NCBI GenBank assembly: GCA_910575695.1
Contig: CAJTGJ010000001.1
Span: 1-64,000, forward strand
Reading direction: 5' to 3'
DNA length: 64,000 nucleotides
Source of the DNA: Oscillospiraceae bacterium
GTDB lineage: Bacteria > Bacillota > Clostridia > Oscillospirales > Oscillospiraceae
Shown: positions 6,725 through 62,489 of the stretch, piece by piece
Numbering within the stretch: position 1 is the stretch's first letter
How the letters are laid out: the number at the start of each line of letters is the position of its first letter
Notes under the pieces: generated by a model
What the model was told of the DNA's origin: nothing
What the model saw: the letters and a program-made list of their open reading frames with translations, nothing else
Databases searched by the model: none
Position numbers and translations under genes: made by a program

Positions 6725-6925
6725 ATGGAATTGAAAATGAAACTCCGCAACGAAACCAAAAGCTGCTACCGTTTTGAGCGGCTGAGTGATCAGGGCGACC
6801 TGGTGACGATCTATCTGAAGAAGAAAGATGTCATTGATGCTGGGATTGATCCTCGCAAGGGGATTACCGTTACGATCCAGGAGGCGGAATGCGGTGAGCC
6901 GGGGACAGACCAATTTTCTGGATGA
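6725..6925 (+). CDS. Small conserved phage protein, 66 aa
   Basis: The ATG at 6725 has GGAGG upstream at 6712. The sequence MELKMKLRNETKSCYRFERL then DLVTIYLKKKDVIDAGIDP suggests a small beta-rich fold. It overlaps the start of the cytosine methyltransferase by 32 nt, so the two are probably translated together. The 88-nt gap before it shows nothing clear. No known domain is recognised. Confidence 0.6.
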   Translation: MELKMKLRNETKSCYRFERLSDQGDLVTIYLKKKDVIDAGIDPRKGITVTIQEAECGEPGTDQFSG

Positions 6926-8594
6926 AATCATCGTGGACAATTTCGCCGGCGGTGGCGGAGCCTCCACGGGGATCGAACTGGCCACGGGCCGGGTGGTAGA
7001 CATAGCCATAAACCACGACCCGGACGCCATCCTAATGCACCGGACCAACCACCCCCACACCATGCACTATCGGGCCAGCGTGTGGGACGTGGACCCGGTG
7101 GAGGTGTGCAGGGGCCGCCCGGTGGGACTGGCGTGGTTTTCCCCGGACTGTAAGCATTTCAGCAAAGCCAAGGGCGGAAAGCCCGTAGACAAGAATATAA
7201 GGGGCCTTGCATGGATCGTCCTGCGCTGGGCCGGGCTGGTTCGCCCCCGTGTGATCATTCTGGAGAACGTGGAGGAGTTCCAGACCTGGGGACCTGTGCG
7301 GAGGGGGCGGCCTGTGAAGTCAAAGACCGGGCAGACGTTCCGCCAGTGGCTGGGCCAGCTGGAGGCCCTGGGCTACACCGTGGAATGGCGGGAACTGGTG
7401 GCGGCGGACTATGGAGCGCCAACCACGCGGAAACGCTTTTTCCTGATTGCCCGCAGCGACGGGCGGCCCATTGTGTGGCCGGAACCAACCCACGCGTCGG
7501 CGGACAGCCCGGAGGCCAGGGAGGGAACCAAAAAGCCGTGGCGCAGCGCGGCGGAGATCATAGACTGGAACCTGCCCACGCCCTCCATTTTTGCAACAAA
7601 AGAGGAGATCCGGGAGCGGTACGGAGTCGCGGCGGTCCGTCCTCTGGCCAGGAATACCATGCGGCGGGTGGCCAGGGGCGTGGACAAATTCGTGATCCGG
7701 TCCGCCTCTCCGTTCCTGGTGATCGTCAACCATGCCGGGGAGTTCCGGGGGCAAGGGTTGGCGGAACCGCTCCAGACCATCACGGCAAAACATGGGTATG
7801 GCGTGGCTTCACCTGCCATGATCCAGTATCACACTGAGCAAACCGAGAGGGTACGGGGCCAGGGCGTGACTGACCCTATCATGACCATTGATGCCTCCAA
7901 CCGCTACGGGCTGGCGGCGACCACACTGACAAAGTATTACAGCGGGGATCATAACCAGGACGCGGCGGCCCCGCTGCATACGATAACAACGCGGGACCGG
8001 GAGGGCATAACGGTGGCCAATCTGTCCAAATTTTACGGCGGCGTGGTGGGTGCGGCAGCGTCCGATCCCCTCCCTACCGTGACAGCGGTGGACCACAACG
8101 CCCTCCAAACCGCCCACATGGTCAAAATGAAAGGCACCAACTTAGGAGGACAAGCCCAGGACCCGCTCCAGACAATCACCGCCGGCGGCGGACACCATGG
8201 CGTGGTGACAACCCGGATCGTAAAGGCGGGACTGGGAGTGGACCTGCAGAACTGGCCAAAAATACGGGCGACCCTGAATGAGTTCTGCGACTATCACCTG
8301 GAGGACACAGAGGTGATCCTGTTCTCCATCGGCGGGGTCTGGTATTTCATGGCAGACATTGGCCTGCGTATGCTGACGCCCCGCGAACTGTACCGGGCCA
8401 ACGGTTTCCCAGACGACTACAAAATAGATCGGGACTACACCGGCAGAGAGTACGGCAAAACCAAGCAGGTGGCCCGGTGTGGAAACGCGGTCCCGCCGCC
8501 CTTTGCCGCGGCCCTGGTGCGGGCAAACCTGCCAGAATGGTGCGGGGAGGAGATCACCACCATGGAGCAGTTGGAAAAGGCGGTGGCGGTATGA
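6894..8594 (+). CDS. DNA (cytosine-5) methyltransferase with repeated target-recognition region
   Basis: Transfers methyl from S-adenosylmethionine to C5 of cytosine; in a phage this usually protects DNA from host restriction. I chose the GTG at 6894 because AGGAGG lies 9 nt upstream; longer starts lack a site. The 566 residues hold motif I (VDNFAGGGGASTG, about 14-26), a variant motif IV (WFSPDCKHFSKAKGG, catalytic Cys86 in SPDC instead of PPCQ), motif VI (ILENVEEF, about 122-129), motif VIII (RKRFFLIA) and motif X (GNAVPPPFAAAL). Between VIII and X lie about five imperfect repeats around PLxTITA, an unusual recognition region. No restriction gene is adjacent, so it looks like an orphan. Confidence 0.9.
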   Translation: MSRGQTNFLDEIIVDNFAGGGGASTGIELATGRVVDIAINHDPDAILMHRTNHPHTMHYRASVWDVDPVEVCRGRPVGLAWFSPDCKHFSKAKGGKPVDKNIRGLAWIVLRWAGLVRPRVIILENVEEFQTWGPVRRGRPVKSKTGQTFRQWLGQLEALGYTVEWRELVAADYGAPTTRKRFFLIARSDGRPIVWPEPTHASADSPEAREGTKKPWRSAAEIIDWNLPTPSIFATKEEIRERYGVAAVRPLARNTMRRVARGVDKFVIRSASPFLVIVNHAGEFRGQGLAEPLQTITAKHGYGVASPAMIQYHTEQTERVRGQGVTDPIMTIDASNRYGLAATTLTKYYSGDHNQDAAAPLHTITTRDREGITVANLSKFYGGVVGAAASDPLPTVTAVDHNALQTAHMVKMKGTNLGGQAQDPLQTITAGGGHHGVVTTRIVKAGLGVDLQNWPKIRATLNEFCDYHLEDTEVILFSIGGVWYFMADIGLRMLTPRELYRANGFPDDYKIDRDYTGREYGKTKQVARCGNAVPPPFAAALVRANLPEWCGEEITTMEQLEKAVAV

Positions 8595-23426: not shown

Positions 23427-24674
23427 ATGGAAATTGTGAAGATGAAATTATCGGAACTGAATCCGGCGGAGTACAACCCCCGGAAGGCTCTCAAGCCGGG
23501 AGATCCGGCCTATGAAAAGCTGAAGGCGTCCATCCTCTCCTTCGGGAACGTGGAGCCCATCGTGTGGAACCGCAGCACCGGAAATGTTGTGGGCGGCCAC
23601 CAGCGGCTCCGCGTCCTGCTGGACTTGGGTGTGACGGAGAGCGAGGTCAGCGTGGTCGAACTGTCCGAGGTGGACGAAAGGCGGCTGAACATCGCCCTCA
23701 ACAAAATCACTGGCGAATGGGATGATGAAAAGCTGACGTCCCTGCTGGCCGAGCTCACTGCCGGCGGCGTGGATGTGTATCCCACAGGCTTTGACGAGCA
23801 GGAGCTTTCCTCCATGTTCGCAGACCTCACCAAAGCAACTGCGCACGATGACGGTTTTGACCTCACCACTGCCCTGGAGAAAGCCTCCTTCGTGAAACGG
23901 GGTGACGTCTGGACGGTGGGCAGGCATCGCCTCATGTGCGGCGACGCCACCTCCGCCGAGGACGTGGCCACGCTGATGGGCGAGAAGAAAGCCAACCTCA
24001 TCCTGACCGATCCCCCCTATGGTGTCTCCTTCAAGTCCTCGGATGGGCTGACCATCCAGAACGACTCCATCAAGGGGGATGACTTCTACAATTTCCTCCT
24101 CCAGTCCCTTACAAACATGGTCGCCCACCTGGAACCGGGAGGGGCGGCCTATGTTTTTCATGCGGACACGGAGGGCCTCAATTTCCGCCGGGCGTTCATC
24201 GATGCCGGCCTGCACCTGGCCGGGGTGTGTATCTGGGTGAAAAATTCCCTGGTGCTGGGCCGCAGCGACTACCAGTGGCAGCACGAGCCGGTCCTGTACG
24301 GGTTCCTTCAGAACGGCAAGCACCGCTGGTATTCCGACCGTAAGCAGACCACCATCTGGAACTACGATAAGCCCAAGCGGAACGAGAACCACCCCACATC
24401 AAAGCCACTGGACCTGCTCGGCTATCCGATTCAAAACTCCTCCCAGGAGAACGCTATCGTGCTGGACACCTTCGGCGGCTCTGGCTCCACCCTTATGGCC
24501 TGTGAGCAGCTGGGGCGGATTTGCTACACGATGGAACTGGATGAGAAGTACGCCTCCGTCATCCTCCGCCGCTATGCGGAGGGGGCCGGGGACGCCAGCG
24601 GCATCCATGTTCTTCGGGATGGGGAGCGCATCCCCTACGCGGATCTGGTCAAAGAGGTCAGTGCCGGTGGATAG
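23427..24674 (+). CDS. ParB-like nuclease domain fused to N6/N4 DNA methyltransferase
   Basis: 415 residues. The N-terminal ParB/Srx-like domain (about 1-120) shows LNPAEYNPRKAL and VVGGHQRLRVLLDLG. The methyltransferase domain has the catalytic LTDPPYGVSF motif (about residues 193-202) and the SAM-binding LDTFGGSGSTLMACEQLG near residue 350, in the order of beta-class enzymes. This fused type is frequent in phages and methylates adenine (or N4-cytosine) without a cognate restriction enzyme. AAAAGGAGG precedes the ATG. It overlaps the next methyltransferase by 8 nt and is the first gene downstream of the candidate late switch. Confidence 0.9.
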   Translation: MEIVKMKLSELNPAEYNPRKALKPGDPAYEKLKASILSFGNVEPIVWNRSTGNVVGGHQRLRVLLDLGVTESEVSVVELSEVDERRLNIALNKITGEWDDEKLTSLLAELTAGGVDVYPTGFDEQELSSMFADLTKATAHDDGFDLTTALEKASFVKRGDVWTVGRHRLMCGDATSAEDVATLMGEKKANLILTDPPYGVSFKSSDGLTIQNDSIKGDDFYNFLLQSLTNMVAHLEPGGAAYVFHADTEGLNFRRAFIDAGLHLAGVCIWVKNSLVLGRSDYQWQHEPVLYGFLQNGKHRWYSDRKQTTIWNYDKPKRNENHPTSKPLDLLGYPIQNSSQENAIVLDTFGGSGSTLMACEQLGRICYTMELDEKYASVILRRYAEGAGDASGIHVLRDGERIPYADLVKEVSAGG

Positions 24675-26253
24675 GTTAAAGCTGGGGAGCCTGTTCGATG
24701 GCTCCGGGGGTTTTCCCCTGGGCGGCCTGCTGGCTGGCGTTACCCCGGTGTGGGCCTCGGAGATCGAGCCGTTCCCGATCCGGGTGACTACAAAGCGGCT
24801 GCCGGGGATGCGGCATCTGGGGGACGTGTCCTCCATCAACGGCGCAGAGATCGAGCCGGTGGACATCATCACCTTCGGCTCGCCCTGCACCGACATGAGC
24901 ATCGCCGGCAAGCGGGCCGGTCTGGAGGGGGCGCAATCCTCCCTTTTCTACCAGGCCATCCGCATCATCAAGGAAATGAGGTGTGCAACCAATGGAAGAT
25001 ACCCGCGCTGGGTCTGCTGGGAGAACGTTGTCGGGGCCTTCAGTTCAAACAAAGGCTTCGACTTCAAGGCGGTCCTCGATGCGGTCATCGGCATCGCAGA
25101 GCCGGGGGCCTCGGTGCCTATGCCTGAGAAAAACCGATGGCCCTACGCCGACGTTTACATGGGAGACCGATGGAGCGTTGCGTACAGAGTTTTTGATGCG
25201 CAATTCTGGGGAGTCCCCCAGCGAAGACGCCGCTGTTACCTTGTCGGAGATCTTACAGGCCGATGCGCCGGACGGGTATTGTTTGAGTCCGAGGGCCTGT
25301 CGGGGTATTCTGCGGCGGGCTTCCGCGCGTGGCAAAGAGCTGCCCGCTATCCTTCGGCTGGCACTGGAGCTGCAGGCGGGATCTGCCTGAATGACCAGGG
25401 CGGGAGCCGCATGGACATCTCGGAGGAGGTGGCCAGCACCCTCCGGGCGGAGAGCCACGGCCACCCGCCCTGTGTGATGGCGGCAGGCTTCTGCACGGAG
25501 CATTCCGCCGCAAGCCGATCTATCGGCTATGGCGAGGAGTGCTCCCCAACGCTCCGGGCCGGGGTAGTCCCCGCCGCTGTGTATGAGAACCATAGCCAGG
25601 ACACCAGATATACCGGCCCCTTGGACACGGCCCCCACGGTCAGCTCCACCTACGGTACCGGGGGCAACAATCAGCCCTTTGTGGTGGACCTGCGGACATA
25701 CGATGTCCGCTTCACATCGGAGGGCACCAAAAACGCCCGCCAGAACGTCTATGAGACAGACACCGCCAGAACTATCGACACCGGGGGCAATCCCCCGGAC
25801 TCCAACCAGGGCGGGGTGGCGGTGGTGGCTGACCCTGCGGCCTACGCCATGACTATGTGCGGATTCCCCCAGGTCAGCAAGGAGCAGGCCCCCACGCTGC
25901 TGGCGCGGGATTTCAAAGACCCGACAGCAGTCAATCGGGGATACACCGTGAGAAGGCTCACCCCCACAGAGTGCGCCAAGTTACAGGGGTTCCCGGACTG
26001 GTGGTGCGCCGGCCTGGAGACCCCGGAGCCGACAGAGGAGGACATCACCTTCTGGTCGGAGGTCTGGGAGGCCCACCGCAGGATCATAGGGACGGCCACT
26101 AAGCCCAAGACAAGGAACCAGATCGTCAGCTGGCTGCAGTCTCCGCATTCGGATTCCGCCGAGTACAAAATGTGGGGAAACGGGGTCGCGCTGCCCAACG
26201 TGTTCTTTGTCCTCGCCGGCATTGTGTGGTCTACACAAGAGTGGCCAGGATAA
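24667..26253 (+). CDS. Second DNA (cytosine-5) methyltransferase
   Basis: 528 residues from the GTG at 24667 (a GTG at 24661 is also possible), chosen to place GSLFDGSGGFPLGG, motif I, near the N-terminus. Motif IV is TFGSPCTDMSIAGKR with catalytic Cys74, motif VI is CWENVVGAF and motif VIII is QRRRRCYLVGD. The target-recognition region again has loose repeats (PTLRAG, TVSSTYGTGG, TIDTGGNPPD, PTLLARDF). Motif X is present as WGNGVALPNVFFVLAG. It is coupled to the ParB-methyltransferase gene. Together with the gene at 6894 the phage encodes three methyltransferases, probably for evading several restriction systems. Confidence 0.88.
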   Translation: MDRLKLGSLFDGSGGFPLGGLLAGVTPVWASEIEPFPIRVTTKRLPGMRHLGDVSSINGAEIEPVDIITFGSPCTDMSIAGKRAGLEGAQSSLFYQAIRIIKEMRCATNGRYPRWVCWENVVGAFSSNKGFDFKAVLDAVIGIAEPGASVPMPEKNRWPYADVYMGDRWSVAYRVFDAQFWGVPQRRRRCYLVGDLTGRCAGRVLFESEGLSGYSAAGFRAWQRAARYPSAGTGAAGGICLNDQGGSRMDISEEVASTLRAESHGHPPCVMAAGFCTEHSAASRSIGYGEECSPTLRAGVVPAAVYENHSQDTRYTGPLDTAPTVSSTYGTGGNNQPFVVDLRTYDVRFTSEGTKNARQNVYETDTARTIDTGGNPPDSNQGGVAVVADPAAYAMTMCGFPQVSKEQAPTLLARDFKDPTAVNRGYTVRRLTPTECAKLQGFPDWWCAGLETPEPTEEDITFWSEVWEAHRRIIGTATKPKTRNQIVSWLQSPHSDSAEYKMWGNGVALPNVFFVLAGIVWSTQEWPG

Positions 26254-49295: not shown

Positions 49296-50531
49296 ATGCC
49301 AGACGAATACGCATACCCATACGACGCCCCTGAGTTCCTGCGGAGGCAGAGCGCAGAGGAAATACACCGCAGAATGCTCGACAGCCTCCCGCAGGGGATA
49401 GACAAGAGCGAGGGCAATATCCCGTGGGACTTCACCAGGCCGCCGGCACTGGAAAAGGCGGAGATGGTAGAGTTCACGCTGAACGAGACCGTCAAGCTGA
49501 TGTTCCCGCAGTGGTCTTACGGGAAATGGCTCGACCTGCACGGGGAAAAGGTGAACTGTATCCGCAGGGCGGCGAACCGGGCGAGTGGAGCACTGTCCGT
49601 GACCGGTACCAAGGGAACGGTCATTCCGGTCGGCTATCAGTTTGCCACACCAGCGGAACTGACCTCCAGCGTACTGTTTGAAGCCATCGAGAGTGTGAGT
49701 CTGGACGGTGAGCCGGACAGCAAGGGACAGGTGACGCGCCAGGTGCCAATTCGGGCGCTGGATGGTGGGCTAACGGGCAACGTTGCGGAGGACGCCGTCA
49801 AGCTGATGGTAAAGCCGATGAGCGGCATAGCTTACGTCACGAACCCGGAAGCGATCACAGGCGGTGCGGAGGCGGAGAGCGATGCGGACTACCTGATCCG
49901 CATACTGGACGCAATGCGCAACGGCTCATCCATGACGGGCTGCGTGGCAGACTACATCCGCTGGGGCAAGGAAGTCCCGGCAGTGGGACAAGTCATCGTT
50001 GACCCGGAGTGGCCAGATCCCGGCCTCCCCGAACAGTTCCACTACTTGGACCGCTTGGGGCGGGAAAGGTGCGCGGGGGCGGTGCGGCTCATCATCGTGG
50101 ACAGCAGCGGCCTCCCGGCGAACAAGCAGATTCTGGACGCGGTATATATTCACATCGCCGGGGACGGCCCGGAGGACATAAAACGGCTGATGCCAATCGG
50201 AGCGCACCTGACTGTTATTGCCCCGGAGGGCTTGACCGTCAACATCGCGGCAGAGGTTCAGTTGGAGGAAGGCGCAGACGTCGAGGCCGTAAAGGAGCGG
50301 TTCAGAAAGAACCTCGCCGGATACTGGCTGACCGTAGGGCAGGAGGCTGTTGACGACGAGATCGGCCATCTGGGCTACATCCGCTGGGTACAGGTCGGAG
50401 CAGTTCTGGCAAAGACCCTGGGCGTCATCGACTACACTGGCCTGACAGTAAACGGCGGCACGGTCAATATCCCGGTGGAACACGTGCAGTATCCGGTAAC
50501 GGGGGAGGTGGAGTTGATTGTCCAAGCCTGA
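49296..50531 (+). CDS. Baseplate J-like protein (XkdT-like)
   Basis: 411 residues, with GGGGGAGG upstream. It has the J-family order: MLDSLPQGIDKSEGNIPWDF, YGKWLDLHGEKVNCIRRAAN, RASGALSVTGTKGTVIPVGY, then ESDADYLIRILDAMRNGSS. It builds the baseplate rim. It overlaps the next gene by 14 nt. Confidence 0.9.
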   Translation: MPDEYAYPYDAPEFLRRQSAEEIHRRMLDSLPQGIDKSEGNIPWDFTRPPALEKAEMVEFTLNETVKLMFPQWSYGKWLDLHGEKVNCIRRAANRASGALSVTGTKGTVIPVGYQFATPAELTSSVLFEAIESVSLDGEPDSKGQVTRQVPIRALDGGLTGNVAEDAVKLMVKPMSGIAYVTNPEAITGGAEAESDADYLIRILDAMRNGSSMTGCVADYIRWGKEVPAVGQVIVDPEWPDPGLPEQFHYLDRLGRERCAGAVRLIIVDSSGLPANKQILDAVYIHIAGDGPEDIKRLMPIGAHLTVIAPEGLTVNIAAEVQLEEGADVEAVKERFRKNLAGYWLTVGQEAVDDEIGHLGYIRWVQVGAVLAKTLGVIDYTGLTVNGGTVNIPVEHVQYPVTGEVELIVQA

Positions 50532-51681
50532 GCTTGACATCATCCGCAGCCAGTCGGCGGAGGCGTTCCTGCGCTCGGTCACTAAAGGCTTTTATGATCA
50601 ATCCTATACTGCCCTGTGGATGTATGAGGTCATTGGGCGGGAATGGGACGAACTGCGCGAGTGGTCGGAGGGAATGCGCACCGAGATACACCCGCAGACC
50701 TGCACCTGGAGCATCCCCGTCTGGGAGTGGGTGTACGGGTTTGAGCCGGACGAGAGCCTGACGCTGGAGGATCGGCGGCGGCGTGTCCTGTCAAAGGTGT
50801 TCGGCGTCAAACCCATCAACCCGGAGTCCATACGCAGGGGCGTCTCTGCGGTGGCGGGGATGGATGCCAAGGTTACCGACCTTACAAATCCATACGGATT
50901 CGGGATCACCCTCCTGCCGGACATCGAGACCACCCCGGACGAGGCCATCCTGGCAGCCATCCAGGACGGGAAAATCACGCGGTACGTCCGGGAGGTAAAA
51001 CCCGCCCACCTCCGAGTGGATATAGACATCATCGTGCGCGTGAACGCAAAGCCCGCTATCGCCAGGGCGGGGGCCGGTACGCCGGGCCTGTGGGAGACCG
51101 TCCGCACCCCCCTGGAACTGCCTGTCCCCCTGATCAAGCCCACGGCGGGCGTCCGTGCAGCCGTCACAACGGGCCTGCGGGAAAGCGCGGCGGTCAGAGT
51201 GGAATTGCCCACTCCCGTTGTCCGCCCCACAGCAAGCGTCCGTGTGGGCGCTGTAACGGGCCTGTGGGAGAGCATGGCGGCCAGGGTGGAATTACCCACC
51301 CCCATCATCAAACCCACGGCAACGGCCCGCACAGGAGCCGCAGCGGCGCTCTACGAGGCGTTCACGGCAGGGGTGGATCTGTCCGCGCCTGCCATTCGGA
51401 GGCTGGCCAGCGCACGGCTGGGAACCACGGTGAGCCTGCTGGATGAGTTCGAGGTGCGGCTCGTGCTGCCGGACGGAGTGCCGGCGAGGAGTGGGGCAAG
51501 GCTCCGGGCGGTCGTGGTCAGCACATGGCAGGAGTGCTATGTGACCCAGGCCGTTCCCCTCATGGACAAGGTGTTAACTGCCACTGCGCAGGCCCACGCA
51601 AAAGGCGTGGTGGCGTCAACGCAAGAAACAGCGAAGACCCATATCAATTTACAGGAGGTAGACTATGGCGGAACAGAGTAA
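50518..51681 (+). CDS. Baseplate wedge protein (XkdU-like) with extra tandem repeats
   Basis: 387 residues from a TTG at 50518 with GGGGGAGG upstream. Residues 1-185 match XkdU: SQSAEAFLRSVTKGFYDQSY, EWSEGMRTEIHPQTCTWSIP and TLEDRRRRVLSKVFG. From about 200 to 345 there are five 29-residue repeats (ELPTPVVRPTASVR, then GLWES) not expected in this family. They may form a beta-rod that links wedge and fibre. It overlaps the fibre gene by 17 nt. Confidence 0.78.
   Translation: MSKPELDIIRSQSAEAFLRSVTKGFYDQSYTALWMYEVIGREWDELREWSEGMRTEIHPQTCTWSIPVWEWVYGFEPDESLTLEDRRRRVLSKVFGVKPINPESIRRGVSAVAGMDAKVTDLTNPYGFGITLLPDIETTPDEAILAAIQDGKITRYVREVKPAHLRVDIDIIVRVNAKPAIARAGAGTPGLWETVRTPLELPVPLIKPTAGVRAAVTTGLRESAAVRVELPTPVVRPTASVRVGAVTGLWESMAARVELPTPIIKPTATARTGAAAALYEAFTAGVDLSAPAIRRLASARLGTTVSLLDEFEVRLVLPDGVPARSGARLRAVVVSTWQECYVTQAVPLMDKVLTATAQAHAKGVVASTQETAKTHINLQEVDYGGTE
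51115..51552 (+). repeat. Five tandem 87-bp repeats in the XkdU-like gene
   Basis: Units start E/D/V-L-P and repeat every 29 residues (last unit 30). The first three are closest; the last two have drifted. A related GTPGLWETVRTP segment just before suggests a degenerate sixth unit. The regular period suggests internal duplication. Confidence 0.82.
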
Positions 51682-54436
51682 AACCACGCGCTGGTCTAAA
51701 ACGGCGGTGACGGATGCCGGTACCAGCCTGCTGACCGAGTTTGCGGCGGGGCGGCTCCTGACCATCACCAGCGCATTCGGCTCCGTCAGCGACCCTGGGG
51801 GGAACCTGGTGGAGCTGACGGAGCTGCCTGATGGCCGGGAGCACCCGCTGACCATCGAGAGCGTCACCCGGACGGATGAGAATGTGACCGTGTGCATCCA
51901 GGTAACGAGCATCGGGAACCCGGAGCCGTACAAGCTGGAGCAGATTGGCATCTTCGCCGCCGCCGGGGACGCCAACGGCATGGAGGGCCATGTGGGCGGC
52001 GAAAAGCTGCTGATGGTCATCGAGGACACGGAGGATGAGCGCGGCGGCAAGGGCGTGACCGTGCCGGCGGAGACCGACCAGCTCTACACCTTCAAGCTGT
52101 ATGCCGTGCTGACGGTGACCAATAAGGAGCGGCTGGAGATCAGCGTGTCCAGCGCGGGTATCGCCACGATGGGCGCCATCGAGGACGCGATGAAGGCCCA
52201 CATGGAAGACCCCAACGCACACCCCGCGCTGGCCGGTGGGACCGTTGAGGCCCACAACACCGACCCGGAGGCCCACCCCGGCCTGACCGCTCGGATGCTG
52301 GCCACGGAGCTGGCTCTGAACGGGAGCGAGACGATCCTCGCCCCGGAGGGCGACCCCACCACCGAGACGGTGGGCAGGAAGGGCCAGCACTACATCAACA
52401 TGGACACCGGCACGGAGTGGGAGTGCGCCGGCGTGAAGGACGGCGAGTACATCTGGGGGCTGGTGGACTACGCCAGTGAAAACTACAAGTCCATGCGGGA
52501 TGTTCTGAGCGAAGCGGCTTCCACCGCGGCCCAGGCCAAGGAGGTGGCCGATGGCGCCGCAAAGGCTATCGCCGCCGTTCAGAACACCATCTCCGTGATC
52601 CCCTCTCAGTCCGGCAGCCTGACCTACAACGGCGGCACCCAGATTCCCAGCTGGAACAATCTGGCCCTGGAGATGATGGACATCACCTACGGGGAGGGCA
52701 GGGTTCCAGCGGCTGAGTTCCAAGGCGAGACGGATGCCGGGACTTACAAAGCCTACGTCACGCCCAAGGAAAAATACACCTGGGGCGACAAGTCCGCCGA
52801 GGAAAAGGAGATTCCCTGGAGCATCCAGCGGGCCACCATCACCACCGCCCCCAGCGTGAGCGGCTCCCTGAGCTACACCGGGGAGGCCCAGGCCCCCACT
52901 TGGCTGAACCATAACCCGGAGCAGCTGACAAAGGCGGAGACGGCACAGACGGACGCTGGGCAGTATTCCTCCTCCTTCACGCCCACCAAGAACTATCAGT
53001 GGAGCGGCGGCGATACCTCGGCCCGAGTGATCCCCTGGTCTATCGCCAAGGCCGCAAACACCTTCAGCATCGCCCCCAGCGCGGCCCAGGAACTGGATGT
53101 GGGCGACACGGTGGTGATCCAGGTGACGTCCAACAGCGACGCTGTCATCACGGCGGAGTCCAGCAACACGTCCTTTGCCACGGTGTCTGTAGACGCGAGC
53201 GCCAAGACCGTGACCATCCGAGGCGTCGGTCAGGGGACGGCGGTCATCTCTATCAACAGCAAGGGCAGCACCAACTATGCCGACGCCGGTACTACCCTCA
53301 ATGTGGATGTGAGCCGGAAGACGCCCACCTTCTCCCTTAGTCCTTCGGGTGCTCAGTCTTTGAACATTGGCGGTAGCAAGCAGATCGCAGTGACTACCAA
53401 CAGCGACGGGGCTGTGTCCGCCAGCTCCAGCGCCCCCGGCGTAGCCACGGCAGCGGCCAGCGGGAAGAACGTGACCATCTCCGGCGCATCCGCCGGCAGC
53501 GCGGTGATCACCATCTCTGTGCCGCAGACCACGAAATACAATGCGGCCAGTGCCACGGTGAGCGTCAGTGTGGTCAAGCCCACAGTGTCCAATTCTTCCT
53601 GGGATGACATCAAGGCCATTTCTGACGCGGGAACAGCAGCCAGCTACTTCGCCCCCGGCGACACCAAGAGCCTCACCCTCAACGGCACGGTGGGGACGCT
53701 TGCGCTGAATAATCTGCAGGTGGACGCCTTCATCCTGGGCATCAACCACAACGCCTCCAGGGAGGGCAGCAACCGCATCCATTGGGCCATCGGGAAGATC
53801 GACGGGACCCTCATTGCCCTGTGTGACAGCTACTACAACAGCGGTTATACGGACGGCAAGAAAGCGTTCAACATGAACCACTGGGGGAATCTCAACTACG
53901 GCGGCTGGAAGGGGTGCGACCTCCGCTATGACATCCTGGGCAGCACCAATAAGGCCCCCAGCGGCTACGGGAGCCAGGTTCAGACAAACCGTACCGGGTA
54001 TGACCCGGCCAACTACGACATCGTGAACAGTCCGGTGGCCAACACGCTCATGGCGGCTCTGCCGAAGGACGTCCGCAAGGTGATGAAGACTGTCACCAAG
54101 TACACGGATAACAAGGGCAATGCCAACAATAACAACTCGTCTGCGGTGACCTCCTCGGTTGATTACATCTTCCTCCTGTCGGAATTTGAGGTGTATGCGG
54201 CGAAGACCTACGCCAACGACTATGAGAAGAACTACCAGGTGCAGTACGACTACTTCAAAGCAGGTAACAGCAAGCAGGTGTTTAAACACGACGCACGTCC
54301 CGCAGCTGTGTGGGGCCCTCTCCGCTCCCCTAATTGCAATAGCAGCAATACCTTCTCGGCGCTGGGCTCCGGCGGCTCTGTCCGCCATTGCAATGCAAAC
54401 TATTGCGGGGGGCTGCTGGCCGGCTTTTCTACCTAA
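51665..54436 (+). CDS. Tail fibre / receptor-binding protein diversified by the DGR
   Basis: 923 residues. The N-terminal 160 residues are a tail-collar fibre domain (AGRLLTITSAFGSVSDPGGN; QLYTFKLYAVLTVTNKERLE). A His-rich linker, then MBG-like domains (SGSLTYNGGTQIPSWNN; SGSLSYTGEAQAPTW) and bacterial Ig-like domains (AVITAESSNTSFATVSVDAS; AVSASSSAPGVATAAASGKN) form a shaft. The C-terminal 280 residues are a DUF6273/C-type-lectin-like domain ending in AVWGPLRSPN and CGGLLAGFST. The last 44 codons coincide with the variable repeat, so residues at exposed lectin-loop positions are rewritten by retrohoming. GGAGG overlaps the upstream gene. It should bind the bacterial surface. Confidence 0.88.
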   Translation: MAEQSKTTRWSKTAVTDAGTSLLTEFAAGRLLTITSAFGSVSDPGGNLVELTELPDGREHPLTIESVTRTDENVTVCIQVTSIGNPEPYKLEQIGIFAAAGDANGMEGHVGGEKLLMVIEDTEDERGGKGVTVPAETDQLYTFKLYAVLTVTNKERLEISVSSAGIATMGAIEDAMKAHMEDPNAHPALAGGTVEAHNTDPEAHPGLTARMLATELALNGSETILAPEGDPTTETVGRKGQHYINMDTGTEWECAGVKDGEYIWGLVDYASENYKSMRDVLSEAASTAAQAKEVADGAAKAIAAVQNTISVIPSQSGSLTYNGGTQIPSWNNLALEMMDITYGEGRVPAAEFQGETDAGTYKAYVTPKEKYTWGDKSAEEKEIPWSIQRATITTAPSVSGSLSYTGEAQAPTWLNHNPEQLTKAETAQTDAGQYSSSFTPTKNYQWSGGDTSARVIPWSIAKAANTFSIAPSAAQELDVGDTVVIQVTSNSDAVITAESSNTSFATVSVDASAKTVTIRGVGQGTAVISINSKGSTNYADAGTTLNVDVSRKTPTFSLSPSGAQSLNIGGSKQIAVTTNSDGAVSASSSAPGVATAAASGKNVTISGASAGSAVITISVPQTTKYNAASATVSVSVVKPTVSNSSWDDIKAISDAGTAASYFAPGDTKSLTLNGTVGTLALNNLQVDAFILGINHNASREGSNRIHWAIGKIDGTLIALCDSYYNSGYTDGKKAFNMNHWGNLNYGGWKGCDLRYDILGSTNKAPSGYGSQVQTNRTGYDPANYDIVNSPVANTLMAALPKDVRKVMKTVTKYTDNKGNANNNNSSAVTSSVDYIFLLSEFEVYAAKTYANDYEKNYQVQYDYFKAGNSKQVFKHDARPAAVWGPLRSPNCNSSNTFSALGSGGSVRHCNANYCGGLLAGFST
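54298..54428 (+). repeat. DGR variable repeat (VR)
   Basis: 131 bp at the end of the fibre gene, aligned without gaps to the template repeat at 55146-55276. Nine internal differences (five A to G, three A to C, one A to T, read from TR to VR) all lie at template adenines in AAC, AAT or TAC codons. The tenth is C for A at 54424, in the initiation region at the 3' end. Codons change from N-Y-N-N-N-N-N to N-C-N-S-S-N-T and from N-N-Y-N-A-N-N to R-H-C-N-A-N-Y. Confidence 0.95.
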
Positions 54437-54463
54437 TCCTCCGCAGAGTATCCCGCCCCTATC

Positions 54464-54544
54464 CCGCCCCCGGAAGGGGGCGGCCCACTGGGGCCGACAA
54501 AAACCGGCCCGAAGGGCCGGAACATGGAGGGCGCGTAAGCGCCC
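54464..54544 (+). other. Hairpin cluster downstream of VR, with terminator
   Basis: Four stem-loops in 81 bp: CCGCCCCC-GGAA-GGGGGCGG (54464-54483), CGGCCC-ACTG-GGGCCG (54481-54496), CCGGCCC-GAA-GGGCCGG (54504-54520) and GGGCGC-GTAA-GCGCCC (54529-54544), then GACGCGA and five Ts. The first has the GRNA-type tetraloop and 8-bp stem of the DNA hairpin that promotes retrohoming in known DGRs. The last can also end transcription of the fibre gene. Confidence 0.75.
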
Positions 54545-54570
54545 GACGCGATTTTTGAAATTTTGCCCCT

Positions 54571-54598
54571 TTGCTATTTTGTGCTTTTGTGTTATACT
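54571..54598 (+). promoter_or_regulatory. Promoter candidate for avd-TR-RT
   Basis: TTGCTA (54571-54576), a 16-nt spacer and TATACT (54593-54598), 35 nt before the avd start and just after the terminator-like hairpins. It would allow the DGR to be expressed in the lysogen, independently of the late operon. Confidence 0.5.
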
Positions 54599-54632
54599 GG
54601 CCCATATCCAGAATGGCGAAAGAGGTAGAATT

Positions 54633-55115
54633 ATGTCGGTACTCGCTAACAAGCGCATTGTCAGCAAAGCGGAGTTTGTCAACACGGCAAATCAAATATA
54701 TGTGGAGACGTTAAGCTTTCTGACAAGAATGTCCGCACGATATTCTCGGTTGCTGGCAGAGCCGGTGGCGAAGCTTGCGGGGGAGATTGTTGACCATTCC
54801 GAAAAGGCTAACAGCATCTTTCCCATGGATGGAAAGCGGGTTGTGGTGCCTCAGCGCGCACGACTGCGCAGGGCGCATTTATTGGAGGCCATGGCCTCAC
54901 TCAAAGCACTGGATGTGCGACTGACTCATTGCTACCTGGTCATGAATCAGAACCCGGAAGGCTGTTTTACTACGGCGAACGGGAAAACAGTCAGTTCAAA
55001 GGAGGCGATAGAAAAGCTTGATAAAATGTCTCAGAGTTTGGGGGATCTTATCGACCATGAGGATAATCTCCTAAAGGGCCAAATTGACAGCATTGAGAAA
55101 ATGCTAAAATCCTGA
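54633..55115 (+). CDS. avd: DGR accessory protein Avd-like (four-helix bundle)
   Basis: 160 residues with AAAGAGGT upstream. The start MSVLANKRIVSKAEFVNTAN and the helical RYSRLLAEPVAKLAGEIVDH and LLEAMASLKALDVRLTHCYL fit the Avd/bAvd group: small basic helical proteins that form pentameric barrels and bind the reverse transcriptase and template RNA. It stands between VR and TR, as in many Firmicutes DGRs. It is more AT-rich than the late genes, a sign of separate origin. Confidence 0.8.
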   Translation: MSVLANKRIVSKAEFVNTANQIYVETLSFLTRMSARYSRLLAEPVAKLAGEIVDHSEKANSIFPMDGKRVVVPQRARLRRAHLLEAMASLKALDVRLTHCYLVMNQNPEGCFTTANGKTVSSKEAIEKLDKMSQSLGDLIDHEDNLLKGQIDSIEKMLKS

Positions 55116-55145
55116 CTGCGCGTTGGGTGTACTTCTGATAATTTA

Positions 55146-55276
55146 TCCCGCAGCTGTGTGGGGCCCTCTCCGCTCCCCTAATTACAATAACAACAATAAC
55201 TTCTCGGCGCTGGGCTCCGGCGGCTCTGTCAACAATTACAATGCAAACAATTGCGGGGGGCTGCTGGCCGGATTTT
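55146..55276 (+). ncRNA. DGR template repeat (TR)
   Basis: 131 bp, identical in length to VR, with ten adenine differences. It encodes the template part of an RNA that would extend into the following 225 nt (55277-55501), a stretch with no gene of its own. Asn- and Tyr-type codons (AAC, AAT, TAC) are concentrated at the variable positions, as expected for adenine-specific mutagenesis that avoids stop codons at those sites. Confidence 0.92.
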
Positions 55277-55501
55277 ACGTAAATACGCGGTCAAATGGAG
55301 TAGCGAAAGCGAAAGACGACCGACGTAAAAGGAGAGGTACTTCCCTGGGTAGCCAATCCCTAAAACTTCCCTCTGATGTCCTTACACGGACGCTTCTTGC
55401 ATGGCGGGAGAACGTGCCAGCTCCCGTTTCATGTGTATTAGGACAACGCAGATTTAGACGGCACCCTACAAGACAACTGTACAGGGGGAGAATACTTTTT
55501 T

Positions 55502-56680
55502 ATGAACAGTCAGGAACGCCGGGAAGCCCGGTACCAGCGCCGCAAAGCCAAGCGGCAGAAAAAGCGTGAGGAGCGGTGCGCCGCCCTCGGCCCTCTGAGC
55601 GAGGTGTTCAGCTATCGGAAAATGTTCTTTTATGGGCGGAAGTGCTGCAACGGCGTCCGCTGGAAGCAGAGCACCCAGAACTTCGAGTTACACCTCTTTT
55701 CCGGCACCGCCCGCCGGCGGCGGGAAGTCCTGGAGGGGAGATGGAAACCGAAGAAATGTGTCCACTTTACGCTGTGTGAACGGGGCAAGGTGCGGCCCAT
55801 TGACGCGCCCCACATCACCGACCGGCAGATCCACAAGACCCTCTGCAATGAGGTGCTGGTTCCTCTGTACACCCCCAGCATGATCCACGACAACGGGGCC
55901 AGCCAGATCGGGAAGGGGCTGCACTGGCATTTCAAGCGGCTCAAGCAGCACCTGGCGTGGCACTTCCGGCGCTATGGCCGGGAGGGGGCTGTCCTCCAAA
56001 TCGATTTGAAGGGCTACTTCCCCAATGCGCCCCACGCCCTGATTTACCAACGTCACCAGCAGCTGATCACCGACCCGGTTCTCCGGGAACTGGCGGACAA
56101 GATTATTCGGTTCTCTCCCTGCCCCACACCGGGGAAGGGAATGCCGCTGGGCGTGGAGCCGAGCCAGCAGGAGATGGTGGCACTGCCAAGCGACATCGAC
56201 AACTGGATCAAGTGCCAGGCCGGGGTCGAATATGAGTGCCATTTCATGGATGATTTTCTGATGACCTTCCCTACCATTGAGGAGGCCAAACGGGCAGGCC
56301 ATGAGATCGTGCGGCGGTTTGAGGCCCGCGGTATCCGGGTGAACCGGCGCAAATGCAAGGTCACCCCGCTCACAAAGCCCTTCCGTTTCTGCAAGGCCCG
56401 GTTCACCCTGACGGAGACCGGGAAGATAAAAATAAACGGGAGCCGGGACGGAATCAAACGCGCCCGCAGAAAGCTAAAGCTTTTTCACCGGGAGTTCAAG
56501 GCTGGCAAGCGGGAGTTCAAGGACATCGAGCAGTACATGGAGTGCCAGAGCGCCTACTACCGCTGTTTCGATGACCATGGGCGCCTGCTCCGCCTGCGGC
56601 GGCTCTACCACGCTATCTTTTTTGGAGGTGCAAAATGTTCAGGATCACCAACACCAGAGATGGGAAAAGCCTCGGCATGA
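55502..56680 (+). CDS. DGR reverse transcriptase
   Basis: 392 residues of the DGR class, making adenine-mutated cDNA from the TR RNA. A basic N-terminus (EARYQRRKAKRQKKREERC) is followed by the RT core: VLQIDLKGYFPNA (first catalytic Asp168), PLGVEPSQQE (216-225; the G-x-x-x-S-Q motif of DGR RTs) and CHFMDDFLM (FMDD at 248-251, in place of the usual YMDD). The thumb ends near residue 380. GGGGGAG precedes the ATG. An in-frame TAG lies 21 codons upstream and the codons between (DNADLDGTLQDNCTGGEYFF) look protein-like, so the true N-terminus could be unusual. It overlaps the next gene by 46 nt. Confidence 0.9.
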   Translation: MNSQERREARYQRRKAKRQKKREERCAALGPLSEVFSYRKMFFYGRKCCNGVRWKQSTQNFELHLFSGTARRRREVLEGRWKPKKCVHFTLCERGKVRPIDAPHITDRQIHKTLCNEVLVPLYTPSMIHDNGASQIGKGLHWHFKRLKQHLAWHFRRYGREGAVLQIDLKGYFPNAPHALIYQRHQQLITDPVLRELADKIIRFSPCPTPGKGMPLGVEPSQQEMVALPSDIDNWIKCQAGVEYECHFMDDFLMTFPTIEEAKRAGHEIVRRFEARGIRVNRRKCKVTPLTKPFRFCKARFTLTETGKIKINGSRDGIKRARRKLKLFHREFKAGKREFKDIEQYMECQSAYYRCFDDHGRLLRLRRLYHAIFFGGAKCSGSPTPEMGKASA

Positions 56681-58396: not shown

Positions 58397-59716
58397 ATGA
58401 ATACTGAAGAAAGAATCTGGAGCTTTCTGAAGGCCCAGGGGCTCACCGACGCTGGCGCCGCCGGCCTGATGGGGAACCTCTACGCAGAGTCTGGCCTGCG
58501 GCCCAACAACCTCCAGAACAGCTACGAGGGGAAGCTGGGCATGGCCGATGCCGAGTACACCGAGAGGGTGGACAGCGGCAGCTACACCAACTTCGCCCAT
58601 GATTGCGCCGGGTATGGACTGGCACAGTGGACGTACCACACCCGCAAGGCTAACCTACATAAATTCGCCAAAGATGCAGGTAAGAGCATCGGCGACCTGG
58701 AGATGCAGCTCGGCTTTTTGATGAAGGAGCTGTCCACCAGCTACAAGACGGTTCTGGCCACGCTGAAGACCGCCACCAGTGTCCGGGCCGCCTCCGATGC
58801 CGTCCTGCTCCAGTTCGAACGCCCGGCGGATCAGAGCGAGGCCGTGAAGGCCAAGCGGGCCGGGTACGGCCAGAAGTATTTCGACAAGTACGCACAGAAA
58901 GGAAGTGTCAACACCATGGGATTTTCCAACAGCCCTTTGGCCACGGTCAAGCTGATTTCTCCCAATAAGACCGTCGGCCGGAACCACGCCATCGACACCA
59001 TCACCATTCACTGCTTTGTCGGCCAGGTGACCGCCAAGCGGGGGTGCGAGGTGTTCCAGCCCAGCAGCAAGGGGGCCTCCTGCAACTACGTTGTAGGGTA
59101 CGATGGCTCCATCGGCCTGTGTGTCGAGGAGAAGGACCGCTCTTGGTGTACGGGCGGCTACAAGAAGGTGAACGGGATCTCTGGCTCCTCCAACGACTAC
59201 CAGGCTGTTACCATTGAGGTGGCCTGTGAGGCCAAGCACCCCTACGCCATCACCGAGAAGGCCATGGCCGCGCTGATCGAGCTGTGTACCGACATCTGCC
59301 GGCGCAACGGCATCAAGAAACTGCTGTGGTCCGGTGACAAGAACCTGGTGGGCAACCCCGCCAAGCAGAACCTCACGGTTCACCGCTGGTTCGCCAACAA
59401 GGCGTGCCCCGGCGACTACATCTACCAGCGGCTCGGCGACATCGCCGCGAAGGTGAACGCCAAGCTGGGGGCCACCGGCGCGGCCCCGGTACAGCCCTCC
59501 GCTCCCGTGAGCAGTGTTCCCTATAAGGTCCGCATCACCGCCACCGATCTGCGCATCCGCAAGGGTCCCGGCACCAACACCGCCATCGTCCAGAACGCCA
59601 TCACCCCCGGCGTCTACACCATCGTCAGCGAGGCCACCGGCCAGGGTGCCACACTCTGGGGCAAGCTGAAGTCCGGCAAGGGCTGGGTGTCGCTGGACTT
59701 CTGCAAGAAAATTTGA
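58397..59716 (+). CDS. Modular endolysin: tail-lysozyme, amidase and SH3 domains
   Basis: 439 residues. The N-terminal domain (1-165) is a phage tail-lysozyme/glycosidase with Glu31 in LYAESGL as the likely acid. A linker leads to an N-acetylmuramoyl-L-alanine amidase of the amidase-2 type (about 185-350), with zinc ligands His205 in TITIHCF and His329, Cys337 in TVHRWFANKACPG. An SH3b cell-wall-binding domain closes the protein (about 375-439, DLRIRKGPGTNTAIVQ). Two catalytic domains would cut glycan and stem peptide. The ATG follows GGAGGAG and 13 nt separate it from the holin. Confidence 0.9.
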   Translation: MNTEERIWSFLKAQGLTDAGAAGLMGNLYAESGLRPNNLQNSYEGKLGMADAEYTERVDSGSYTNFAHDCAGYGLAQWTYHTRKANLHKFAKDAGKSIGDLEMQLGFLMKELSTSYKTVLATLKTATSVRAASDAVLLQFERPADQSEAVKAKRAGYGQKYFDKYAQKGSVNTMGFSNSPLATVKLISPNKTVGRNHAIDTITIHCFVGQVTAKRGCEVFQPSSKGASCNYVVGYDGSIGLCVEEKDRSWCTGGYKKVNGISGSSNDYQAVTIEVACEAKHPYAITEKAMAALIELCTDICRRNGIKKLLWSGDKNLVGNPAKQNLTVHRWFANKACPGDYIYQRLGDIAAKVNAKLGATGAAPVQPSAPVSSVPYKVRITATDLRIRKGPGTNTAIVQNAITPGVYTIVSEATGQGATLWGKLKSGKGWVSLDFCKKI

Positions 59717-62062: not shown

Positions 62063-62351
62063 GCCAGCGAGACCGGGGGGCAGGGCCGTAAGGCCCTGTT
62101 TGCCGTTTGCGGCCCCCTGTGGCGCGTTCTCCGGGTGGGCGGGTGTTTACCCCTCCACCGCCGCAGGGCCCCGCTGTGGCCGGCGGCAGGGTGTGGTGTG
62201 GCCGTTTCCTGTTCCGTTTTCAAGGTGCGTATGTAAAAGGGGCGGCGGTTGACTCCCCCTGTGCCGATGGGTATACCCATGAGCGCCCGCCCCACTACGG
62301 GGGCGGCTGGACTTGCACCAGCGGCGGCGAATGCCGTCGGCCTTGCGGGCG
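62063..62351. other. Gap without a recognised gene
   Basis: 289 bp between convergent genes. It holds a hairpin CAGGGCC-GTAA-GGCCCTG at 62081-62098, 19 nt after the plus-strand stop and followed by TT, probably a weak terminator. GC-rich readings in several frames lack ribosome binding sites. Nothing else is supported. Confidence 0.5.
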
Positions 62352-62489
62352 TTAGTTTTCTTCCTGCTCCGCTGGTTCGTAAGTATCGCAGCCAGCTACG
62401 GAAATGTTTACGGCCTCCCCACCGTAAGAGCAATGACCGTCAAGCCAGAACTCACAATCGGAACGGATGCATTTAATTTCAAGCATCAT
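62352..62489 (-). CDS. DUF1540-like cysteine mini-protein, 45 aa
   Basis: Start at the tandem ATG pair at 62489, after AGAAAGG. The peptide IKCIRSDCEFWLDGHC then ISVAGCDTYEP has the spaced-cysteine pattern of DUF1540 proteins, common small zinc- or disulfide-containing proteins in clostridia. It is part of the minus-strand accessory operon that begins at 63377. Confidence 0.6.
   Translation of the reverse strand: MMLEIKCIRSDCEFWLDGHCSYGGEAVNISVAGCDTYEPAEQEEN

What the first reader, a model, noticed from the sequence alone, without database searches (positions are those of the whole stretch)
54298..56680. Complete diversity-generating retroelement in the tail module
A 131-bp VR at the 3' end of the fibre gene and a 131-bp TR 848 bp downstream align without gaps. 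All ten differences fall on template adenines (nine internal, one at the 3' initiation region). An Avd-like gene, the TR and an FMDD-type reverse transcriptase with the DGR-specific GVEPSQ motif follow. The two clusters of changed codons lie in loops of the lectin-like end of the fibre. This phage should be able to switch receptor specificity.
Basis: partly seen in the sequence, partly recalled or inferred. Interest (0 to 1): 0.9.

Follow-up and report, generated by a model that had tools for sequence, protein, structure and literature searches.

The report
Tail-fibre mutation machine and its RNA
This stretch of phage DNA holds the full set of parts of a diversity-generating retroelement, which likely rewrites the tip of a tail fibre by error-prone copying of a template, and the structured RNA beside that template, catalogued as "RT-2", is predicted to start the copying by pairing with the template's end.

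Summary
VR 54298-54428 and TR 55146-55276 align over 131 nt without gaps; all 10 differences sit on TR adenines (p 2.9e-8). An Avd-like gene and a DGR-clade reverse transcriptase follow. It is a diversity-generating retroelement (DGR) of the Faecalibacterium phage Taranis/Roos/Pioen type, a kind already in print.

Added here: (1) the TR-RT gap is Rfam RT-2 RNA (172.5 bits). Searched by that RNA alone, 24 of 24 other hits over cut-off lead into a reverse transcriptase and 22 of 24 follow an adenine-specific repeat pair, so RT-2 is very likely DGR spacer RNA. (2) The TR 3' end pairs with RT-2 just before GGAG, with covariation (69 two-sided changes; shuffles average 17, at most 37): the likely priming helix. 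(3) The tenth difference is a fixed TR-A/VR-C mark (24 of 26 pairs). (4) A hairpin follows VR in 26 of 26. (5) The Avd-like protein is predicted to fold like bAvd. (6) Three contigs with the identical TR differ pairwise at 12-18 VR sites but 0-1 elsewhere. Activity and receptor switching in this phage are untested.

The parts
51665..54436 (+). Tail-fibre gene, the DGR target (923 aa): N-terminal tail-fibre part, C-terminal DUF6273 domain holding the VR
   Evidence: phrog_27381 tail fibre at 10-190, phrog_37900 at 567-922; PF19789 DUF6273 at 795-900, 28.7 bits over cut-off 23.5; model of residues 639-923 at pLDDT 95.2
54298..54428 (+). Variable repeat (VR)
   Evidence: 131 nt, 10 differences from TR, all at TR adenines
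54424..54424 (+). Fixed mark: C in VR where TR has A (55272)
   Evidence: A/C in 24 of 26 pairs and in 20 of 24 RNA-found pairs by an automatic rule
54464..54483 (+). Hairpin after VR: 8-bp GC stem, loop GGAA
   Evidence: a stem of 7 bp or more with 4-nt loop within 80 nt of VR in 26 of 26 pairs, starting +33 to +39; 114 of 5200 random 80-nt stretches; 1 of 15 after TR; DNA fold z -2.06, 4 of 200 shuffles as good
54633..55115 (+). Avd-like gene (160 aa)
55146..55276 (+). Template repeat (TR)
   Evidence: identical over 126 nt in L003, L004 and L026
55273..55280 (+). 5' strand of the TR-spacer helix, TTTTACGT
   Evidence: complement of 55323-55330; covariation
55286..55509 (+). RT-2 RNA (RF03077), very likely the DGR spacer / priming RNA
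   Evidence: 172.5 bits, cut-off 40, whole model 1-222
55323..55334 (+). 3' strand of the helix ACGTAAAA followed by GGAG; the predicted primer adenine lies here
   Evidence: the primer site itself is inferred from BPP-1
55502..56680 (+). DGR-type reverse transcriptase (392 aa, LGVEPSQ, FMDD)
   Evidence: PF00078 47.3 bits; phrog_1423 251 bits; tree

Best explanation
A tailed phage carries the full set of parts of a diversity-generating retroelement, whose reverse transcriptase, helped by an Avd-like protein, likely copies the 131-base template with errors at adenines into the end of a tail-fibre gene, and whose RT-2 RNA, between template and enzyme gene, likely primes that copying by pairing with the template's 3' end. 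Shown from sequence: the VR/TR pair and its adenine specificity here and in relatives, the RT's place among DGR RTs, the RT-2 RNA, the covarying TR-end helix, the VR hairpin, the fixed A/C mark, and VR variation between contigs that are otherwise almost identical. Predicted by model: the folds of the Avd-like protein and of the fibre's C-domain. Inferred from BPP-1: priming from a spacer adenine at or just after the helix, cDNA that starts 5' of the fixed mark so that the mark is never copied into VR, and homing helped by the hairpin. Not shown: activity of this copy, and that the fibre tip binds the host receptor.
For: 10 of 10 differences at TR-A; 266 of 631 A sites against 7 of 2047 others in 22 distinct pairs and 367 of 778 against 6 of 1995 in 24 pairs found by RNA search. 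RT with known DGR RTs. RT-2 RNA in 32 of 33 RT-found loci scanned and, searched by the RNA alone, an RT in 24 of 24 and a repeat pair in 22 of 24 loci over cut-off. TR-end helix: own partners 6.83 of 8 against 5.50 swapped, best of 2000 swaps 5.90; 69 two-sided changes against 17 in shuffles, at most 37. Hairpin 26 of 26. Avd fold and a sequence chain to Shimadzu Avd. VR hypervariable between otherwise near-identical contigs. Related phages Roos and Pioen show read variation at VR (PMC11792537, passages).
Against: No activity data for this copy. The RT has FMDD where most rows of the tree have YMDD. Single-sequence folding does not find the TR-spacer helix in its best structure, and the RNA is not more stable than shuffles (z -0.45). 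Pair 2 of the helix is C-A in 7 of 32 combinations. One search used combinations anchored by eye, with L046, L048, L049 and L071 left out; one search was automatic, with 3 loci unanchored and L044, L049 and L040 mis-anchored. 12 of 26 hairpin loops do not fit the published GRNA loop. Avd by hhalign: nothing with BPP-1 (probability 0.8%) and weak with Shimadzu (7%). L020: only 7 of 18 differences at TR-A.
Confidence: 0.88

Rival explanations
1. The element is a DGR that no longer works; VR was last rewritten in an ancestor.
For: FMDD in place of YMDD; only 9 of 26 template adenines before the mark differ, fewer than in most relatives; no reads were examined.
Against: All parts are open and intact; FMDD is also in L028, 92% identical, whose VR differs at 19 TR-A sites; contigs with the identical TR have three different VRs.
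Confidence: 0.08
2. RT-2 RNA is not the priming RNA but a separate regulator, for example a leader of the RT gene.
For: It ends at the RT start codon (55509 against 55502); Rfam lists it as sRNA.
Against: It follows TR closely, pairs with the TR end with covariation, and holds the place of the BPP-1 spacer, which primes and binds bRT-Avd (PMC12875486, passages) and which Rfam has as Phage_DGR. A leader role could coexist.
Confidence: 0.08
3. VR and TR are an ordinary duplication that has drifted.
For: Two similar copies 848 bases apart.
Against: 10 of 10 differences at A of one copy, p 2.9e-8; the same bias across relatives.
Confidence: 0.01
4. The DGR works, but the diversified domain does not bind the host receptor; it binds something else, such as mucus or another partner.
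Against: The gene sits right after baseplate genes and has a tail-fibre N-terminus.
Confidence: 0.2

Closest known systems
DGR of Faecalibacterium phages FP_Taranis, Roos and Pioen
   Same: Same gene order, RT 67-68% identical, DUF6273 target, RT-2 RNA in Taranis (175.1 bits), the GGATTTT.. / AAAAGGAG helix in all three. VR read variation is reported for Roos and Pioen.
   Different: Different phage and fibre body. Cornuault 2018 found Avd only in Mushu and Lagaffe (PMC5883640, passages); in the Taranis record the gene in the Avd-like place, 5074-5532 of L040, is a hypothetical protein.
Bordetella phage BPP-1 DGR
   Same: VR, Avd, TR, spacer RNA and RT in this order; a TR-end/spacer helix TR123-129/Sp48-54 with Sp56 an adenine; hairpin after VR (PMC3240598, passages); Avd fold.
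   Different: RT 21.6% identical; its spacer matches another Rfam family, RF03022; five IMH/IMH* differences against one here; target Mtd instead of DUF6273.
Roseburia phage Shimadzu DGR
   Same: RT-2 RNA (144.9 bits); an annotated Avd linked to the window's by a sequence chain.
   Different: RT 35.6% identical.
Rfam RF03077 RT-2 and RF03022 Phage_DGR
   Same: The window's spacer is a full RT-2 match; RF03022 is Rfam's DGR RNA, found at the same place in BPP-1.
   Different: RT-2 carries no DGR label in the cmscan output, and its model starts after TR, so it lacks the TR-spacer helix.
Tentaclins and nd4/nd12 target-2 proteins
   Same: DUF6273-type domain with the VR; published models resemble C-type lectins (PMC10743442, passages).
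   Different: Here the VR ends a 923-aa fibre; tentaclins have an N-terminal VR domain followed by Ig domains.

Membership tests
Diversity-generating retroelement | TR/VR pair that differs at template adenines | tested here: met
   10 of 10
Diversity-generating retroelement | RT of the DGR group, [IVL]GxxxSQ instead of QGxxxSP (motif recalled) | tested here: met
   LGVEPSQ; 3 of 3 group II rows have QGxxxSP; tree
Diversity-generating retroelement | Avd or other accessory protein | tested here: met
   [not shown]
Diversity-generating retroelement | IMH/IMH* difference at the 3' end | tested here: met
   one fixed A/C site, 24 of 26 pairs
Diversity-generating retroelement | hairpin downstream of VR, GC stem of 7-10 bp, 4-nt loop | tested here: met
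   8 bp, GGAA, from +36, two bases beyond the published 4-34 bp range
Diversity-generating retroelement | mutagenic retrohoming activity | not testable with these tools
   only indirect: VR variation between near-identical contigs
Rfam RF03077 RT-2 | score over the gathering cut-off | tested here: met
   172.5 against 40 bits
Rfam RF03022 Phage_DGR (BPP-1 spacer RNA) | score over the gathering cut-off | tested here: not met
   no row at E <= 10 for 54000-55700, while BPP-1 gives 104.7 bits
Group II intron RT/maturase | NCBIfam TIGR04416 cut-off; intron RNA | tested here: not met
   57.2 of 300 bits; no intron RNA family in the window at the gathering cut-off
DUF6273 (PF19789) | score over the gathering cut-off | tested here: met
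   28.7 against 23.5 bits
C-type lectin fold | structural match of the VR domain to C-type lectins | tested here: inconclusive
   [not shown]

The most novel reading that the evidence does not exclude
Rfam's RT-2 RNA is the priming RNA of a whole clade of DGRs, and one rule joins them with BPP-1: the last bases of the template pair with a spacer segment, this helix presents the primer adenine, and the fixed A/C mark at its edge records where copying starts. A DGR can then be found, and its primer site predicted, from the RNA alone.
Probability: 0.8. Interest if true: 0.6.

Novelty: new member of a known kind. Interest (0 to 1): 0.42.

Why it matters
As an element it is one more gut-phage-type DGR. 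Its worth is the RNA. It gives a likely function to a family that Rfam calls only RT-2 RNA, adds a covariation-backed helix that joins template and spacer and lies outside the Rfam model, and names a small region (55323-55334) where the cDNA primer should lie. That makes the priming rule testable outside Bordetella. It also suggests that phages of the Taranis type, for which no Avd was reported, have a diverged one.

Tried and rejected
Rejected: drifted duplication; group II intron or defence RT (TIGR04416 57.2 of 300 bits, Drt3a 24.6 of 200 bits); a second VR in this genome (only TR and one VR match; a scan of the window that allows any base at A found nothing else within 20 mismatches of 70).

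Led nowhere: single-sequence RNA folding; hhalign of the Avd profile against BPP-1 and Shimadzu Avd (shallow alignment, Neff 1.6); phmmer of the Avd-like protein against the PDB (one unrelated row at E 1); Foldseek for Avd, no match at E <= 0.001, before the VIA second look. Not run: a wider search for RT-2 outside this phylum, a structure of the RT or of a complex.

Papers. Seen as passages: PMC5883640, PMC12875486, PMC8867640 (it says that a trailing RNA of about 200 bp in the Bordetella system is predicted to be structured and to interact with RT and accessory protein), PMC3240598, PMC8144416, PMC10743442, PMC11792537, PMC8143477 (it cites Weinberg 2017 for DUF genes, not for the RT), PMC11701678, PMC7657543, PMC6642488. 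PMC8637638 was searched without a hit (46). Not held, so not seen: Weinberg 2017 on 224 structured RNAs (15, 94), and the BPP-1 biochemistry and cryo-EM papers (91-93). I therefore cannot say what Weinberg 2017 says of RT-2. That BPP-1 cDNA is primed at spacer A56 is recalled; PMC12875486 says only that an internal spacer adenine primes. In the held library I found no paper that joins RF03077 or 'RT-2 RNA' to DGRs, by the searches, nor a report of the TR-spacer helix; that is absence from those searches, not from print.

Not listed in the VIA second look at the fibre domain, which is no exclusion: Mtd and other DGR variable proteins.

Counts to read with care. L054 is probably the same contig as L030 (equal contig length), so the RT-found and RNA-found sets overlap. 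L014 has only a cut RT-2 match. L015, L023 and L024 were not scanned for RNA. My note gives 23 and 10 RNA-found loci; a recount gives 24 over and 9 under the cut-off. Blast E-values are for a set of nine proteins.
Full report
What is there. Around them run a baseplate J gene (49296-50531), a Mu gp48-like tail gene (50518-51681), the fibre (51665-54436), the Avd-like ORF (54633-55115), TR, RT (55502-56680) and an endolysin (58397-59716). Upstream lie terminase, portal, major head and tail sheath genes, so the phage likely has a contractile tail. The window is the first 64 kb of a 356-kb contig of a 5.06-Mb bacterial assembly, so it is likely a prophage; its ends and integrase were not sought. 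Named carriers of relatives include Flintibacter muris, Pseudoflavonifractor and Colidextribacter.

The repeats behave as a DGR should. Relatives were found by the RT: 24 viral and 12 genome contigs. Of these 36 loci plus the window, 26 hold a VR/TR pair. Of the other 11, L038 is a group II intron and the rest are cut short around the VR or TR. In 22 distinct pairs 266 of 631 TR-adenine sites differ in VR (113 to G, 77 to C, 76 to T) against 7 of 2047 other sites. Set aside before that count: L009 and L010 as copies, L032 for an indel, and L020, in which only 7 of 18 differences are at TR-A. Pairs found through the RNA alone give the same picture: 367 of 778 against 6 of 1995 in 24 pairs.

VR varies in nature in close kin. 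L003, L004 and L026 carry the window's TR letter for letter over 126 nt, an identical Avd-like protein, and RTs 98-99% identical, L026 over 146 residues only. Compared pairwise they differ at 18, 12 and 18 of 126 VR sites (15, 11 and 15 at TR-A sites) and at 0, 1 and 1 of 2321, 2085 and 2085 other sites, with no TR difference. L013, L025 and L031 show 15-17 VR differences, all at TR-A sites, and 0-1 elsewhere; L031's TR differs from the other two at 6 sites. Other pairs compared there (L017/L019, L033/L037, L032/L033, L022/L030) also differ at 51-381 sites elsewhere, so they say little. The related phages Roos and Pioen show read-level variation peaks at their VR (PMC11792537, passages).

The RNA. 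The gap between TR and RT matches Rfam RF03077, RT-2 RNA, over its whole length at 172.5 bits. Of 33 RT-found loci scanned, 32 have it, all but the group II intron L038. To break the circle I searched genomes for the RNA alone: 391 of the class, 300 of the family, 398 of the phylum, partly the same genomes; 14 control genomes had none. Besides the window's own, 24 loci exceed the cut-off. All 24 have an RT just downstream. In 22 a VR/TR pair with adenine-biased differences ends within 76 nt upstream; in the other two, L061 and L066, only 306 and 521 nt of upstream sequence are held. Of 9 weaker hits, 8 have an RT (not L071) and 2 (L048, L049) a pair. Among named phages Taranis (175.1 bits) and Shimadzu (144.9) have RT-2; Toutatis is under the cut-off at 21.9; BPP-1 matches RF03022 Phage_DGR (104.7); VP58.5 matches RT-14 weakly (37.4 of 48.1); Brigit, ANMV-1 and the Fischerella plasmid show no row at E <= 1, Fontainebleau only unrelated families. 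In the RT tree 18 of the 19 rows of one clade (100/99) have RT-2 over the cut-off, the odd one being Fontainebleau, its first branch; one row outside the clade, L066 in the Toutatis group, also exceeds it, at 44.5 bits.

The template-spacer helix. The TR 3' end after GGA (55273-55280) is the exact complement of eight spacer bases that end right before GGAG (55323-55330). It recurs with changed letters on both sides. Over 40 distinct loci, taken automatically from 68 with 3 unanchored and the rest repeats, the own partner scores 6.83 of 8 on average against 5.50 (sd 0.11) for swapped partners, best of 2000 swaps 5.90. In 32 distinct combinations anchored by eye, 88.3% of cells pair against 67.6% in shuffles (best 72.3%) and 43-52% when slid; two-sided changes number 69 against 17 on average, at most 37. 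Pair 2 is C-A in 7 of 32. The 7 combinations from the most divergent loci pair at 87.5%, with 3 two-sided changes among themselves. These controls do not remove relatedness, but the letters change between loci whose RTs share as little as 22-37% with the window's. BPP-1 has the like: TR123-129 with Sp48-54, and Sp56, an adenine, two bases past it, which I recall as the cDNA primer. It is one of four 7-bp runs that the same search finds near the BPP-1 TR end, so its choice leans on that recall. The five non-mutagenic BPP-1 differences lie at TR120 and 124-128, beside or in this helix. The Rfam model starts after TR and lacks this helix. Single-sequence folding does not propose it.

The mark. 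At 54424/55272 VR has C and TR has A in 24 of 26 pairs; the exceptions are L017, whose TR reads C, and L032, misaligned by its indel. In RNA-found loci an automatic rule gives A/C in 20 of 24; L046 is also A/C by eye, L065 is C/C, L048 and L049 are unclear. A site that stays fixed and different in both copies is not being rewritten. The simplest reading is that cDNA begins 5' of it.

Standing. The kind, the target family and activity in close relatives are in print. Within the limits told under Tried and rejected, I did not find in print the identity of RT-2, the covarying helix, or an Avd fold for this group.

Noticed in passing
window 62270-62353 (-); L020 11007-11086 (-); L028 12569-12653 (-); L017, L018, L019: A twister-sister ribozyme lies on the minus strand about 5-7 kb after the RT in the window, L020 and L028; in L017, L018 and L019 hammerhead II ribozymes (3, 2 and 1) sit on the same strand about 4.6-5.9 kb after the RT, as if one ribozyme class replaced another.
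   Followed up: no
L017 5639-5762; L031 5630-5758: Template repeats that seem to have been overwritten by variable sequence: L017's TR has 18 A against 33 in L019 and carries the VR-type C mark; L031 (an isolate) differs from L013 and L025 at 6 TR sites and shares several changes with its own VR. An assembly mix-up is possible for L017.
   Followed up: partly
L048 370-436 and 913-980; L049 375-441 and 911-978: Two variable repeats upstream of one template in divergent DGRs found through weak RT-2 matches.
   Followed up: no
window 53555 onwards against L003: The DGR cassette is nearly identical to that of L003 (Avd 100%, TR identical), but the fibre aligns only from 53555 on and drops away upstream, as if fibre bodies were swapped over a constant cassette.
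   Followed up: partly
L004 and L026 VR: Four VR changes at template T sites (three in L004, one in L026), in or next to mutated AAT codons: rare non-adenine changes.
   Followed up: no
[not shown]
   Followed up: no
window 6828-8594 and 24502-26253: Two large ORFs match DNA methyltransferase families.
   Followed up: no
L027 1; L005 1-33: Metagenome contigs break inside TR (L027 starts at window 55177) or just after VR (L005 aligns from window 54541), as expected if VR variation and the repeat disturb assembly.
   Followed up: no
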